From the NCBI GenBank assembly GCA_028698525.1, contig JAQVDB010000018.1, positions 1 to 35,526 on the forward strand: a DNA stretch of 35,526 bases. The letters run 5' to 3'. Both the position numbers and the translations under genes were made by a program. The notes below the pieces were generated by a model. That model was not told the DNA's origin. It saw only the letters and a program-made list of their open reading frames with translations, and did no database searches. Source of the DNA: Clostridia bacterium (GTDB taxonomy: Bacteria > Bacillota > Clostridia > JAQVDB01). Numbering within the stretch: position 1 is the first letter of the stretch; the number at the start of each line of letters is the position of its first letter. Positions 143 through 28,117 of this stretch are shown piece after piece.

Positions 143-1147
143 ATGGAAATCTTATTTAATGCAAAGACATTTGGAGAGCAGCCTATGGAAAAACAGCAAA
201 TAGAAGCTTATACTCAAGCAATCTTCTCAATTTATAATACATTAAAGGAAACTCTAGACTTATCATTATTAAATTCAATTATTATTCCAGAAGACTACAA
301 AGAAGGCTTGTTTGACTTTCAACGACTTAATGGACATGTAGAGTTTATTACTGAAAATGAATATGGAAGAGGGATGGCACAAGTAGTTTCTAGTAAAAAT
401 GAAAGAGAAGAAATAGTATATAACATAGTTATTGATAAAAATATAATATTCACATTAGTAGGTGACGAGCAATTACAAGGCGTAAAAGATAACCTTAAAT
501 TGGAAGAAGAATATAACTTATTTTTATCATCAAGACAGTTGGCTATTAATACTTTATTTCATGAATTTGGGCATATTCATGAATATAGCTTAAACAGAGA
601 TATAGCATGGATCCATAATTTAGAACTAAAAGCAGATTTGCATTCACAACTAGTTATTTTAGCAAGGCAGTGCTGGAGTGAATATTTTGCCTGTAGGATA
701 GCTTCAAAATCATTCCCTTTTGATGAATCAGTTGCTATGGAAATCATCGATACTTGTAATAATGCAGAGGATGGGTTACAAAAACAACGAAGTAGATACA
801 ATAGAATTGAAATAGAATTAAATGAATTTGTCATGGAGTTTCATAGTTATACAAATTTTATTCTGAAGAAAATAGCTTGTGCCCATGGTAATTTATATTG
901 TTTAAATGATTCTAAAGAAAAAATGGTAGATACTATTGAAGTAGCTTTTGGAGATGCGTATATAAAAGCTATTTGGAAAGATTATGGAGAAGCCCTAGAT
1001 GAATTATACATCCAATATCCAAAATGGGAGAGTGATGCTATTTTTAATGATTTATGTAATTTGTTTATCAAATACTACGAACAATATGAAATATTTATAA
1101 GTGAGACTTCCAAAGGCACATATTATGATATTCCTATTCGTTTATAG
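143..1147 (+). CDS. Zincin-like putative metalloprotease (HEFGH motif), function unknown
   Basis: The product is 334 residues. The start is supported by an AAAGGGGGAG ribosome site 8 bases upstream. Residues 138-149 read TLFHEFGHIHEY, a HExxH zinc-binding motif (His140, Glu141, His144), and Glu180 in the later helix SEYFACRIA is placed where gluzincins supply their third ligand. This layout recalls IrrE/M78-type and related cytosolic zincins, but I recognise no specific family. No signal peptide or membrane segment is visible. It follows the DUF4268-like gene by 16 bp, so the pair may act together, conceivably in defence or stress. The gene is very AT-rich, ends against a truncated polysaccharide gene on the other strand, and may be cargo of inserted DNA. 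Catalysis is inferred only from the motif. Confidence 0.65.
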   Translation: MEILFNAKTFGEQPMEKQQIEAYTQAIFSIYNTLKETLDLSLLNSIIIPEDYKEGLFDFQRLNGHVEFITENEYGRGMAQVVSSKNEREEIVYNIVIDKNIIFTLVGDEQLQGVKDNLKLEEEYNLFLSSRQLAINTLFHEFGHIHEYSLNRDIAWIHNLELKADLHSQLVILARQCWSEYFACRIASKSFPFDESVAMEIIDTCNNAEDGLQKQRSRYNRIEIELNEFVMEFHSYTNFILKKIACAHGNLYCLNDSKEKMVDTIEVAFGDAYIKAIWKDYGEALDELYIQYPKWESDAIFNDLCNLFIKYYEQYEIFISETSKGTYYDIPIRL

Positions 1148-1260: not shown

Positions 1261-3524
1261 CTAGAAAAAGTAAGAACTTGTTAAAAACATCAATCCGAAC
1301 GGGTCGTTGCAGTGTGTATGGCCCGGATTATATTCGGGACAGGTACTGCCGCAATCTATAAACAGCTTTGCATTCAGATCCCGCTGATTGATTATATAGA
1401 ACCCGCTTTGCTTAAAATGTTTTATACTATCATCATACGCAGGTATATAAATGCTATTACATATTTCTTTGCCTCTGTCTCCAAATATCAAAAATACAAA
1501 AGTACTGTATACCCCCGAAATATCCTTTGTATCCCCATCACAGTACAATGCACTGCCGGCCTGTATCAGCTCTATGGAGAGCAATTCTTTTGACAATGCT
1601 GAATCGTTAAACAACGGTATCTCCCTATCAGGGTGAAGCATGTTGAGAGAAAAATTCACAGCCTTGCTCAAGCGCCTATCTATTTCTTGGGGATATTGTC
1701 TGCCGTTCAGCCTGAAAAGTTGGACCAATTCTATTAAACCACCCATTACAATATTGTGGTACATAGGAGACCTTTCAAAGTGCCCTCCATCATCCAGTAT
1801 CTGTTCTTTGATCTGCCTATCCAGTAATCTACAAGCCCTTTTATACCATCTTTTTGAACTAGAACATTCAAAAAACATCCCTGCAAATATCAATGCTTTT
1901 ATATTTTCAAATAAATGATTGGCCAGCAGATGATACTCAATATTTCGGAATAAAAAAGATGCCTGCTCAAATAAACTCCCCAGCATCTTTTGTTTGAAAT
2001 GGCATCGCTCTTTTAACAAAACATTGAATAAATGATAGCATTTGATCCAACTGACTATCCTTAGGGACAGGGTATAGGATTCCCATCCCGGTCCATGTCC
2101 TATCTCATTATTGTCTATCCAATCATTTACAATCTCCAAATATTTTTCAAAATATTTGTTTTCGCCGGTAATCCTATATGCGATACCCATCCACTCTATA
2201 TATTGATGATAATGCAGATTATACAACCAAAGTTTGCTTACACTTTTGTCCTGCCAATCCACACCATCACTATAGTCCCTTTTCACATTTAGAAAACAGA
2301 AACTATTATTCAATATTTCATCAGCCTTATCCTGATATTTATCAAAAAGTTTCAAATGTTTTTTATCTAATTCCGTATATCCCGGAAAAAATGTTAGATT
2401 TTCATTTATCCAATAATTCCTACGGCCTAAAATAAATAATTTTTTACTAAACATAAGCTTGATCCTATAAAATATTTGTATAGGCTTTAAATATTTTATA
2501 GTGTTTATATAAAGAAAAATTTTATGTTGATGATTTCTAGGGATTTCATCTATACCCATAACAATTCCTAATATAATCAACAGCCCTATCACAACAACCC
2601 CTAAAAACAGAGAATCTGTTTTGTTTATTATTATACCTAGCAATGCAAAAACAATAGCCAATGAATAGATTATATAAACACTCTTTTTATGTCCTAATTT
2701 CATCCCGATCAGCCTATGGTGAATATGAGATTTATCAGGGTTAAAAATACCCTTTTTGCACATTGCCCTTCTCAATATAGAGACCCCTGTATCAAAAATA
2801 GGAATAGATAATATTAGTATAGGAGTAAAAAGAGAAACAAAGCTGATACTTGTATCTATGGTGAGCATGGATATCACGGCCAGCATATAGCCTAAAAACA
2901 AACTTCCTGTATCTCCCAAAAATATCAGTGCAGGATTATAGTTATATTTAATAAATCCGGCTGTAGAGGCTGCCAGCAATAATGCCATAGTCTTGACTAT
3001 AGCCTTGTTTTGACCGGATGCTATAAAACAAAAAGCAACACAAGCAATTATCGTGATACCTGATGCCAGACCATCCAACCCATCTATTAAATTTATAGCA
3101 TTTATTATGCCTATCACCCACAATATATTCAAGACAATATCAACAAAAGTAAAAATATTTATATCGTCCATGATAGGCGAAAAAAGAGCTGCCCTTATGC
3201 CAAATGAATATAATGCCAATGCGACAGCTACTTCAATCAATAATTTATATGATATTTTTATATCATATATATCATCCAAAATTCCGGTAACCACCATAAA
3301 AGTTGCACACATGATCACCACTGTTAATTTATCTAAATTTTGAATAAACAAAAGCGAAGTCAATACAAAAGATATATATATCCCCAACCCACCCATCAAT
3401 GGTATAGGATATTTATGAATCTTCCTTTGGTCAGGTCTATCTAATATGCCGTATTTTTTAGAGCAGTGTATTATAAGAGGTGTTATACAAAAAGACAAAA
3501 AAATGCTAATACAAATGCCCCCAT
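1261..3524 (-). CDS. WecA/TagO-like glycosyl-1-phosphate transferase fused to a truncated heparinase II/III-like domain
   Basis: The first ~340 residues form a polytopic membrane enzyme of the MraY/WecA/TagO family, which moves a sugar-1-phosphate from UDP-sugar to undecaprenyl phosphate. It has DRPDQRKIHKYPIPLMGG, DDIYDIK, NLIDGLDGLASG, FLGDTGSLFLGY and HIHHRL. After a short linker, about residue 355, comes a heparinase II/III or alginate-lyase-like alpha-toroid (IKYLKPIQIFYRI, LLANHLFENIKAL, DGGHFERSPMYH). It ends at GHTHCNDPFGLMF, where the beta-sandwich should begin, so the 3' part is missing. The uninterrupted frame reaches 3573, but its first residues are hydrophilic, lack a ribosome site and overlap the upstream gene. 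ATG at 3524 has an AGGGGTG site and encodes MGAFVLAFF, a typical family start, joining the main frame by a -1 shift in the T7 tract at 3497-3503. It probably forms an operon with the BY-kinase. Confidence 0.75.
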
Positions 3525-3547
3525 CACGATCACCCCTATAGAGTTTA

Positions 3548-4897
3548 TCAGTTATAGAAATCATATGTATCATAGTATTCTACAGATAGGGCATTGACCA
3601 CTACTCCCACTATATTGCTGTTGACAGCTTTTAGATGATGCAGGGCCCTTTTAAATAAATCTATATTGGTATTTCTATGTCTTACCACCATTATCACTGC
3701 ATCCGCCTTTTTTGAAAGTATGGCTGCATCAGTGAATAAAACAGCAGGAGGGGTATCTATCAATACCGCATCATAATCGGCTTTTACTTTTTCCATCAAA
3801 TTCGCCATTTTATCTGATAATAAAAGCTCTGAAGGATAAAAGGTTTTTGTCCCACTGGGCATTACGTGCAAATTAGGTACATCTACGATATTGTATAACC
3901 CCCTATATTCCACAGCTTCATTCAAAATATCAGTGATACCTCTTTTGGATGCTATATTGAATACAGAGCATAATTCAGGCTTTCTGAAATTACAATCCAT
4001 CAGCAACACTTTCTTGCCGATCTGGGCCATAACAATAGCTAAATTGACAGCAATAGTGCTTTTGCCTTCCAGCTTTTCAGGGCTGGTAACCACGAATACC
4101 TTGTTATTCCCTGCACTGCTCAAGGATAAAATATTGGTCCTTATAATCTTAAATGCCTCTGTAGCTGCCGCATCGGTTAGCATCTTTTTCGGGGGGAGGT
4201 TGTTTTTCATCATAAAACTTAATGGATTTATCCTATATATTTTTCCCTTTAAATAATAATCAGGAACAATCCCGATTAGGGGAATATTGAACCTGCTTTG
4301 CAGGGCATAAGGGTCTTCTACAGAATTATCTAAGTGTTCGTAAACAAAAGAAATCAGCGTTCCAAACATAACCCCTGCTGCACAGGCAATTAAAATGTTC
4401 AAAAAAGGATTGGGTCTATCATAAATTTCGGGAATTCTAGCTTTATCTACTATTTTTATATTGTCGGTATAAATTATTCTGTTTGCATGTTCTTTAAAAA
4501 CCTGGGCAGTGGTGTTAGCGATGCTGCTGGCCATCTTTGGGCTTACACTTTCGGCTTTAATCCTTATTAACCCGGTCTCTCCTTCCGGGTTCACAGACAC
4601 CCTTTTCCTCATCTTTTCAATAGGAATCTCAAAATTTAACTGCCTCATAACATCTATCAGCACCCTGTCACTTTTTATTACATTTATATATGTGTTTAAC
4701 TCTTTCTGATCTGTAATTACATTGCCCAAACTAATATTTTCATCGTTCCTATTGATTATTATGGTAGTAGAAGCAGTATAAATCTTATCCAGTATAAAAA
4801 AGCTCAAAATAGCCGAAGCGGCAATAGAGAGTATTGTTATAAAAAGAATAACTCTTATCCATTTTTTAATTATCCTTAAATAGTCTTTGAATTGCAT
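3548..4897 (-). CDS. Polysaccharide co-polymerase / BY-kinase fusion (Wzz-CpsD type)
   Basis: The 449-residue protein has an N-terminal Wzz/CpsC domain with a first membrane segment near residues 17-36 and a second near 167-186, then a cytoplasmic P-loop tyrosine kinase. The kinase shows Walker A (SPEKLEGKSTIAVNLA), Walker A' (VLLMDCNFRKP), Walker B (DAVLIDTPPA) and a C-terminal tyrosine cluster (EYYDTYDFYN) for autophosphorylation. Such proteins set chain length and export of capsule or exopolysaccharide. In many Firmicutes membrane adaptor and kinase are separate proteins; here they are fused. The second Asp usual in Walker A' (DxD) is Asn, so activity may be altered. An AGGTG ribosome site lies directly before the ATG. 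The WecA-like gene follows 23 bp after the stop. Confidence 0.85.
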   Translation of the reverse strand: MQFKDYLRIIKKWIRVILFITILSIAASAILSFFILDKIYTASTTIIINRNDENISLGNVITDQKELNTYINVIKSDRVLIDVMRQLNFEIPIEKMRKRVSVNPEGETGLIRIKAESVSPKMASSIANTTAQVFKEHANRIIYTDNIKIVDKARIPEIYDRPNPFLNILIACAAGVMFGTLISFVYEHLDNSVEDPYALQSRFNIPLIGIVPDYYLKGKIYRINPLSFMMKNNLPPKKMLTDAAATEAFKIIRTNILSLSSAGNNKVFVVTSPEKLEGKSTIAVNLAIVMAQIGKKVLLMDCNFRKPELCSVFNIASKRGITDILNEAVEYRGLYNIVDVPNLHVMPSGTKTFYPSELLLSDKMANLMEKVKADYDAVLIDTPPAVLFTDAAILSKKADAVIMVVRHRNTNIDLFKRALHHLKAVNSNIVGVVVNALSVEYYDTYDFYN

Positions 4898-4988: not shown

Positions 4989-5567
4989 TTAACATTCCGG
5001 TATACACCCATAAACTATTACGTCCTGATACTTGCCCAGTTTATCTATAACAGTGGCTGTGAGTATAACCTCTATAATCTGCTCATCAGGGGAACATGCA
5101 CTCTTGGGAACAACATTTACATATTCCAATTGATAATCTTTAACCACTACCTTAGACTGATCTACATTATCTTTAAACTCTTGTTGAGTAAGCTGCTTGC
5201 CATCCAGCTTTATGAATTCACAAATAGGTATAGCTTTTTTGAAGGTCCACTCTACCCTTACACAGCTGTAACCCTCGTTAGTCCTGACCCATAAAAATGC
5301 CTTGAATGGTATTGTGACTAACACCTTGCTGGTACAAATAAAATCTTCTTTTACTTCATCCTGATCAAAGATCACTTTAAAATCATCTATACATATTATA
5401 TATTCGTCATTTTTCAAGCCTTCTACTTCTATATTGTATGGGTCGGGATTTCCTTCTTCATCATATCCACCTAATATGGGCTCATCTTTCTGAATATTTT
5501 TAGCTATTATTACCTTAGCCCAAATATCTACCTTGTTTTCTTCCGGTATACCGTTCATTTCAGTCAT
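4989..5567 (-). CDS. Conserved hypothetical protein, possible sporulation surface protein
   Basis: The 192-residue protein is not one I recognise. The start at 5567 (MTEMNGIPEE) is chosen because AAGGGGG lies 7 bases upstream; the frame opens 17 codons earlier without a ribosome site. The sequence is acidic and predicted mostly beta, with alternating hydrophobic strands (DIWAKVIIAKNI, KVLVTIPFKAFLWV, QIIEVILTATVI), no signal peptide and no membrane segment; it ends in Tyr-Gly-Cys-Ile-Pro-Glu-Cys. A sigma-K-like promoter lies 65 bp upstream (5632-5658) and the neighbouring genes include cotJABC, so mother-cell expression and a coat role are plausible but inferred. A relation to DUF3794-type beta-sandwich proteins was considered and could not be supported by eye. 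Confidence 0.6.
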   Translation of the reverse strand: MTEMNGIPEENKVDIWAKVIIAKNIQKDEPILGGYDEEGNPDPYNIEVEGLKNDEYIICIDDFKVIFDQDEVKEDFICTSKVLVTIPFKAFLWVRTNEGYSCVRVEWTFKKAIPICEFIKLDGKQLTQQEFKDNVDQSKVVVKDYQLEYVNVVPKSACSPDEQIIEVILTATVIDKLGKYQDVIVYGCIPEC

Positions 5568-5631
5568 ACAAAAACCCCCTTCCATTTTAATTGACAATAG
5601 CCGTGGTAAACCTTCCACAATTTATTTAATA

Positions 5632-5658
5632 CATTTTATGTAGGGGATTTTATTTTGT
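5632..5658 (-). promoter_or_regulatory. Sigma-K-like promoter for the 192-residue protein gene
   Basis: On the minus strand AC is followed after 16 bases by CATAAAATG. This fits the sigma-K pattern AC-N16/17-CATANNNTA except for the final base. It lies between the stop of the upstream gene and the ribosome site of the downstream gene, giving a leader of roughly 55 nt. Confidence 0.4.
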
Positions 5659-5683
5659 TACAGCAAATGTTAAGTTTCTATAT

Positions 5684-6460
5684 TCACTCTATATAAATAT
5701 TGTTTTTTATAGCCTTGACTACACGAGAAAAATAACTTTCCGCATCATCACTCTGTTTGGAAAGCTGGTCAGCAAATTTGTAGTAGTATTCTATTCTTTT
5801 AAGCTTTTGTTCTATTTTTGAAAGATTGGTCTGAATATTTTCCATGTTTTTTTGTATAGAACCATACTGTTCCTCCAGCTTTTGTTGCCTTTTGGATATG
5901 GTCGAAATATATCGGTCAATCTCATTCAATCTTTGCTGTGTAATATTATACTCTGGGGTATTATAGGGGAATTTTATATCAATAACGCTCTTTTGGATTA
6001 TCATTATATCTACATCCACAGTCAGCTTTATATTTATCACCCAATGATCATATATATGCTCTATTTCATACTCCCATTTGAAATTACCGCATTGGGCCTC
6101 TACCCTATAATTCTGCTCTCCTTGATTGCATACAATATCAGATAATTCTAGCATCACACTGCTTACATGGTTGTTTTCGTTGAAAGTATGATATTCTATA
6201 CTGCCTTGATCTGTATCGGCACAGTACAAAACAGCCATGTCATAGCTATAATCTAACTTGACATTGTTGTTGAGCAATGAAGGATTTATGGATGTATTAA
6301 ATATTTTGCAGCTTTCCACATTGCATATTTTGTTTAAACCTTCACCCTCTAGTCTGTATACATTATAAGGCTGTGTACAAGACCTGCCTGAAAACAATAC
6401 ATTCCGGAAGGTTGCTTTATGTTTTATAATATCTGCATATACCAACGTCTGCCCTTCCAT
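5684..6460 (-). CDS. Hypothetical protein with C-terminal coiled coil
   Basis: The 258-residue product belongs to no family I can name. Start ATG at 6460 is preceded by AGGATG with 7-base spacing. Residues 1-165 are beta-rich and contain four scattered cysteines early on (RSCTQPYN, ICNVESCKIFN). Residues ~170-230 form a coiled coil (NEIDRYISTISKRQQKLEEQ, then NIQTNLSKIEQKLKRIEYYY). No signal sequence or transmembrane segment is seen. It lies between cotJC, after a terminator, and the 192-residue hypothetical gene on the same strand. A structural spore-coat or exosporium role would fit the neighbourhood, but nothing in the protein itself proves it. Confidence 0.55.
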   Translation of the reverse strand: MEGQTLVYADIIKHKATFRNVLFSGRSCTQPYNVYRLEGEGLNKICNVESCKIFNTSINPSLLNNNVKLDYSYDMAVLYCADTDQGSIEYHTFNENNHVSSVMLELSDIVCNQGEQNYRVEAQCGNFKWEYEIEHIYDHWVINIKLTVDVDIMIIQKSVIDIKFPYNTPEYNITQQRLNEIDRYISTISKRQQKLEEQYGSIQKNMENIQTNLSKIEQKLKRIEYYYKFADQLSKQSDDAESYFSRVVKAIKNNIYIE

Positions 6461-27828: not shown

Positions 27829-28117
27829 AAAAAAGTCCTTCCCACCTATAAAATATATAGGGGCGAAGGACTTGTATTCACGGTACCACCCTAGTTCGCT
27901 GCCGATTCACACCGGCAACCTCTTTAAGTGACATTCATCACCTTGTATGTATAACGGATACAAATCCGTTGAAACCTAATCCTACGACTCAGCTTCACAG
28001 TTCCGGGGCCATATTCAGCATATCCTCCAGCTACCGGCTTTCACCTAACTCCGGCTCTCTGTACAACCTTTAGACAGGCCTACTCTTCCCTTCACTACCT
28101 TTTCATGATATTTATTA
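27829..28117 (-). ncRNA. T-box leader (tRNA-Met-sensing riboswitch) of metG
   Basis: The minus strand shows a full T-box leader. Stem I has GAGTAGGCC, an AGAGAGCCGG...AAGCCGG distal stem, and a specifier loop GAATATGGCC whose AUG codon (28010-28012) matches Met. The antiterminator holds the T-box AGGGTGGTACCGTG (27879-27892) with UGGU that pairs with the tRNA ACCA end. A terminator follows: AAGTCCTTC (near 27872) with GAAGGACTT and a T run (to 27829). Uncharged tRNA-Met stabilises the antiterminator and switches metG-tatD on. Confidence 0.95.

What the first reader, a model, noticed from the sequence alone, without database searches (positions are those of the whole stretch)
1261..3524. WecA/TagO-like transferase fused to a heparinase II/III-like domain
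One open frame joins a complete undecaprenyl-phosphate sugar-1-phosphate transferase (DDIYDIK, NLIDGLDGLASG, HIHHRL) to a heparinase/alginate-lyase-like N-terminal domain (IKYLKPIQIFYRI, DGGHFERSPMYH). The junction keeps the normal starts of both domains, so this is not a random run-on. An enzyme that starts polysaccharide synthesis tied to a lyase-like domain that may trim or sense the product is unusual and could form a made-and-trimmed surface polymer system with the adjacent BY-kinase. An AGGA-spaced ATG at the junction (MGIDEIPRNH) could instead allow separate translation of the second half.
Basis: partly seen in the sequence, partly recalled or inferred. Interest (0 to 1): 0.7.

Follow-up and report, generated by a model that had tools for sequence, protein, structure and literature searches.

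The report
Cut-off sugar-polymer gene pair remnant
Two neighbouring genes for making a surface sugar polymer run together into one reading frame here, but the second gene has lost its last third and the start of the first looks shifted, so this is most likely a decaying or broken locus and not a new two-in-one enzyme.

Summary
The frame is real: 3573..1261(-), 770 aa, with no stop between a WecA/TagO-type transferase (11 membrane segments, all motifs) and a heparinase II/III-family domain. Two facts change its meaning.

(1) The heparinase half is cut off. Its 80 nearest relatives are complete proteins, mostly 515-712 aa. The query keeps 45 of 49 near-invariant positions up to residue 417 (window ~1308), then lacks all 16 that follow in the beta-sandwich. 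The missing part was not found elsewhere in the 97%-complete draft.

(2) The transferase start is out of frame with its relatives. The ORF's ATG lies inside the kinase gene and has no ribosome-binding site. The residues matching relatives' first helix lie in another frame from an ATG at 3524; the frame changes at a T7 run, 3497-3503.

No fusion was seen in 80 heparinase loci or 391 class genomes. In two loci (L095, L139) the genes lie side by side but separate. The heparinase half keeps its own ATG, at the usual place.

Best reading: a remnant of an ordinary exopolysaccharide operon, truncated at ~1308, its two halves joined by loss of a boundary. A made-and-trimmed fusion enzyme is not supported. 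Sequencing or assembly error is not excluded.

The parts
2560..3498 (-). WecA/TagO-type polyprenyl-phosphate sugar-1-phosphate transferase part, 11 predicted membrane segments, in the 770-aa frame
   Evidence: Pfam Glycos_transf_4 E 1.9e-34; NCBIfam ECA_wecA model matched below its cut-off; 41-44% identity to 359-362 aa relatives; 11 hydrophobic segments
3499..3573 (-). First ~25 codons of the frame: overlap the BY-kinase gene, do not align with relatives, no ribosome-binding site; probably not the true start
3497..3503 (-). T7 run at which the frame that fits relatives' first membrane helix (ATG at 3524) changes to the frame of the ORF
3522..3524 (-). ATG in the other frame, with GGTGA five bases upstream and just after the BY-kinase stop; likely original wecA start
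1309..2559 (-). Heparinase II/III-family (alpha/alpha toroid) part with its own ATG and AGGA six bases upstream; 417 conserved residues
   Evidence: Pfam Hepar_II_III_N E 3.7e-40; 38% identity to Aquibacillus sediminis over residues 13-418; 45 of 49 conserved positions kept
1261..1308 (-). Unrelated or diverged tail and stop after the breakpoint; C-terminal beta-sandwich absent
   Evidence: all 16 later conserved columns missing; not found elsewhere in the genome
3548..4897 (-). BY-kinase with Wzz/CapA-like modulator, upstream gene of the operon
143..1147 (+). Convergent gene beyond the breakpoint, HEFGH motif, distant relatives on plasmids and a phage; lower GC

Best explanation
This is the remnant of an ordinary exopolysaccharide-type operon: BY-kinase, wecA, heparinase-family gene. 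The heparinase gene lost its 3' third, and whatever followed it, by a deletion, insertion or rearrangement at about 1308 (truncation shown; cause inferred). The wecA boundary has vanished, so wecA reads in frame into the heparinase gene, whose own start codon and AGGA site are still present (shown). The wecA 5' end is shifted out of frame at a T7 run (supported by alignment; either a real mutation or a sequence error). If transcribed, the WecA half could still charge the lipid carrier with a sugar-phosphate on the cytoplasmic side (inferred). The heparinase half, made as a tail or alone from 2559, would most likely be inactive because it lacks the domain that normally completes the active-site cleft (inferred from the fold family).
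For: Only positions 6-42 of 237 of the C-terminal heparinase model match. The 80 nearest relatives are larger unfused proteins, 78 of them 515-712 aa as listed (L147 runs to a contig end). 45 of 49 near-invariant positions are kept up to residue 417, then 16 of 16 are missing. The missing domain was not found in the rest of the genome by profile or by a relative's C-terminal part. Transferase relatives in the class are mostly 330-400 aa frames. wecA lies directly before the heparinase gene as a separate gene in L095 (83-base gap) and L139 (111-base gap). ATG 3573 has no ribosome-binding site while ATG 3524 has one. The other-frame peptide scores +7.3 bits against -12.4. The only other match to the transferase in the genome is mraY in the wall cluster; there is one Glyco_transf_4 protein and no O-antigen ligase above the cut-off.
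Against: Both halves keep their conserved residues and 770 codons are free of stops, so decay, if it is decay, is recent. Window genes checked elsewhere are intact, so the base sequence is not generally error-ridden. The draft has 136 contigs and the window starts at a contig end, so missing pieces may lie in gaps. The 5' frame argument rests on about ten residues of a hydrophobic helix.
Confidence: 0.72

Rival explanations
1. Sequencing or assembly artefact: the organism carries normal separate wecA and full-length heparinase genes, and the draft has a homopolymer length error at 3497-3503 and a chimeric join near 1308, close to the contig end.
For: The frame change falls exactly in a T7 run. 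The breakpoint is 1.3 kb from a contig end, in a 136-contig draft. The segment beyond, 143-1147, has lower GC, 29.5% against 33-37%.
Against: Other genes in the window have complete domains. An artefact at these two places would not explain the missing stop at the junction, where both halves align in one frame. The missing C-terminal part is not on any other contig.
Confidence: 0.17
2. A working fusion enzyme: a WecA-type transferase with a cytoplasmic, shortened heparinase-like domain that binds or modifies the lipid-linked sugar.
For: Continuous frame. 11 predicted membrane segments, which with HIHHRL on the cytoplasmic side puts the C-terminus in the cytoplasm (loop placement as in PMC5222938). 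The standalone relatives L005 and L055 begin without an obvious signal peptide, so the compartment fits. Conserved residues are kept.
Against: The beta-sandwich domain is absent, with every conserved position after residue 417. No other genome examined has the fusion. The 5' end is out of frame. An internal start with its own ribosome-binding site is retained.
Confidence: 0.06
3. Phase-variable locus: slippage in the T-run switches wecA on and off, and the assembly caught the off or alternative state.
For: The frame change maps to a 7-base mononucleotide run at the very start of a surface-polymer gene.
Against: The run is short, there is only one sequence and no read data, and phase variation does not explain the 3' truncation.
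Confidence: 0.05

Closest known systems
WecA/TagO family (Pfam PF00953, polyprenyl-phosphate N-acetylhexosamine-1-phosphate transferases)
   Same: 11 membrane segments, DDxxD, NLIDGLDGL, FLGDTGS and HIHHRL motifs; 41-44% identity to 359-362 aa relatives in the same class
   Different: The start is out of frame with relatives and no stop precedes the next gene
Heparinase II/III-family proteins of exopolysaccharide loci (Pfam PF16889 + PF07940), found next to a WbuB-like GT4 glycosyltransferase; nearest is Aquibacillus sediminis, 38%
   Same: The toroid domain with its conserved motifs (NH, HFE, MYH), and the operon setting with BY-kinase and an initiating transferase
   Different: About a third is missing at the C-terminus; the GT4 partner gene is not downstream; read in frame with WecA
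Heparinase III / heparitin-sulfate lyases of solved structure (4fnv, 5jmd, 4mmh)
   Same: Toroid domain aligned over ~230-280 residues, E 5.5e-19 to 9.7e-17
   Different: Those are complete lyases; here the second domain is absent and the substrate is unknown

Membership tests
WecA/TagO transferases (PF00953) | Catalytic domain and motifs | tested here: met
   Glycos_transf_4 E 1.9e-34, motifs in the alignment
WecA/TagO transferases (PF00953) | About 11 membrane segments ending soon before the C-terminus | tested here: met
   11 segments found, last one 322-338; but the frame continues for 432 residues
WecA/TagO transferases (PF00953) | Intact first helix and start with a ribosome-binding site in the same frame | tested here: not met
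WecA/TagO transferases (PF00953) | Transferase activity on a polyprenyl phosphate | not testable with these tools
   Needs a biochemical or complementation assay
Heparinase II/III family | N-terminal alpha/alpha toroid domain (PF16889) | tested here: met
   E 3.7e-40, positions 44-334 of 340
Heparinase II/III family | C-terminal beta-sandwich domain (PF07940) | tested here: not met
   Only positions 6-42 of 237, below cut-off; 16 of 16 later conserved columns missing
Conserved WecA-heparinase fusion family | Same fusion in independent genomes | tested here: not met
   0 of 80 heparinase loci; none of the closest transferase relatives examined

The most novel reading that the evidence does not exclude
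A membrane-bound initiating transferase that carries a minimal, beta-sandwich-less heparinase toroid on its cytoplasmic C-terminus and uses it to bind or edit the lipid-linked glycan.
Probability: 0.05. Interest if true: 0.6.

Novelty: new member of a known kind. Interest (0 to 1): 0.13.

Why it matters
Mainly as a caution: an open frame that joins two real domains can be a remnant of gene decay. If it were an active fusion, it would link the first step of surface-polymer synthesis to a lyase-type domain in one protein. A side result of more general use is that this heparinase-family gene sits next to a WbuB-like glycosyltransferase in most of the 80 relatives examined, across many phyla, which points to an unexplained role of the unfused protein inside polymer synthesis loci.

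Tried and rejected
A long frame in G120 (751 aa) was checked as a possible second fusion: its wecA is a separate 345-aa gene with no heparinase nearby. Matches of G318 and G188 that ran past the end of wecA contained many stops and were alignment run-on. The remaining heparinase part was sought in the other frames downstream and in the whole genome: none. The segment 1-1330 was tested as a multi-copy insertion element in the genome: single copy. Rfam gave nothing at the locus. The first genome-collection scan with the whole protein found no relative. Paper searches for heparinase in such loci gave nothing useful. One search with wrong coordinates failed and was repeated. No structure prediction was run: it would not tell a decayed from a working fragment.

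Full report
What is there. The minus strand has one open frame from 3573 to 1261, 770 codons. Pfam finds the WecA/TagO catalytic domain (residues 84-237, E 1.9e-34) and the heparinase II/III N-terminal domain (400-679, E 3.7e-40). Eleven hydrophobic segments are found in the first 338 residues, and the transferase motifs are all present. In this family the HIHH motif lies in a cytoplasmic loop (PMC5222938), so after two further segments the C-terminus should be cytoplasmic. The nearest standalone heparinase relatives L005 and L055 begin without an obvious signal peptide, so the two parts belong to the same compartment whether joined or not (inference).

The heparinase half is cut off. The C-terminal domain model matches only positions 6-42 of 237, below its cut-off. 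A scan of GTDB genomes with a small alignment gave 80 nearest relatives, led by Aquibacillus sediminis at 38%. They are larger proteins, 78 of those listed being 515-712 aa (one further member runs to a contig end), and none is fused to WecA. In the alignment the query keeps 45 of 49 positions that are at least 93% conserved, up to residue 417 of this half (window ~1308), and lacks all 16 conserved positions that come later. Only 48 bases of unrelated or diverged frame follow, stop included. The frames downstream hold no continuation. The rest of the genome (136 contigs, 97% complete) has no other match to the domain model and none to the C-terminal part of the Aquibacillus protein. Well-kept residues with an abrupt end point to a recent truncation. 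Beyond it lies a convergent gene, 143-1147, with lower GC (29.5%) and distant relatives on plasmids and a phage, so an insertion or rearrangement is a reasonable cause, but this is inference.

The transferase start is out of frame. The ATG at 3573 lies inside the BY-kinase gene (3548-4897) and has no ribosome-binding site. In another frame an ATG at 3524 follows the kinase stop and has GGTGA five bases upstream. The ten residues of that frame just before the shared part score +7.3 bits against a profile of 31 relatives; those of the ORF frame score -12.4. A random peptide reaches the former with probability 0.0004, a random hydrophobic peptide with 0.01. The frame changes at a T7 run, 3497-3503. 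Whether this is mutation, slippage or sequence error cannot be decided from one draft.

The junction. Both halves align in one frame up to and from the junction, so the missing stop is real in this sequence. The second half keeps an ATG at 2559 with AGGA six bases upstream; about 9% of all ATGs in the window have a comparable site, so this alone is modest evidence. The relatives' starts lie mostly at +2 to +13 in the same numbering, so 2559 is close to the natural start. Adjacent but separate wecA and heparinase genes occur in L095 and L139 with gaps of 83 and 111 bases, which shows the arrangement from which such a frame can arise.

Relatives of the fusion. In 391 genomes of the class, 245 have a strong transferase match; the listed frames are mostly 330-400 aa, and the one 751-aa case proved not to be such a fusion. 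Heparinase relatives in the class and phylum are in frames of their own. No genome closer than class is held, so the test on sister strains was not possible.

Setting. The upstream gene is a BY-kinase. The genome has one other match to this transferase family, mraY in the wall cluster, one Glyco_transf_4 protein on a small contig, and no ligase above the cut-off. In most heparinase relatives a WbuB-like GT4 glycosyltransferase follows directly; here it is absent. A second BY-kinase ends at the edge of contig C42, so part of the polymer gene set may lie in assembly gaps.

Verdict. An ordinary operon remnant with an in-frame read-through, truncated 3' and probably shifted 5'. The made-and-trimmed fusion enzyme is unlikely. 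Artefact is the main rival.

Noticed in passing
3548-4897 (-): The BY-kinase joins its Wzz/CapA-like modulator and kinase in one 449-aa frame; in several relatives (L048, L077) these are two genes, but other class genomes also show one frame.
   Followed up: partly
143-1147 (+): HEFGH protein of unknown function, matching phrog_11743 (7e-8), with distant relatives on four plasmids and one phage; GC 29.5%.
   Followed up: partly
1170-1245: Imperfect direct repeat (GTAGTCGGGAATAAGTC / GTAGGTGGGAACAAGTC on the minus strand) between the truncated gene and the convergent gene; single copy in the genome.
   Followed up: no
L077-L156: This heparinase-family gene is followed by a WbuB-like GT4 glycosyltransferase in most of 80 loci across many phyla, a conserved gene pair inside polymer synthesis loci whose function I could not find described.
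   Followed up: partly
4989-6460 (-): Two proteins of 209 and 258 aa without a convincing family match, next to spore-coat genes (CotJB, Mn-catalase-like).
   Followed up: no
27856-28104 (-): T-box leader (119.7 bits) just upstream of the methionyl-tRNA synthetase gene.
   Followed up: no
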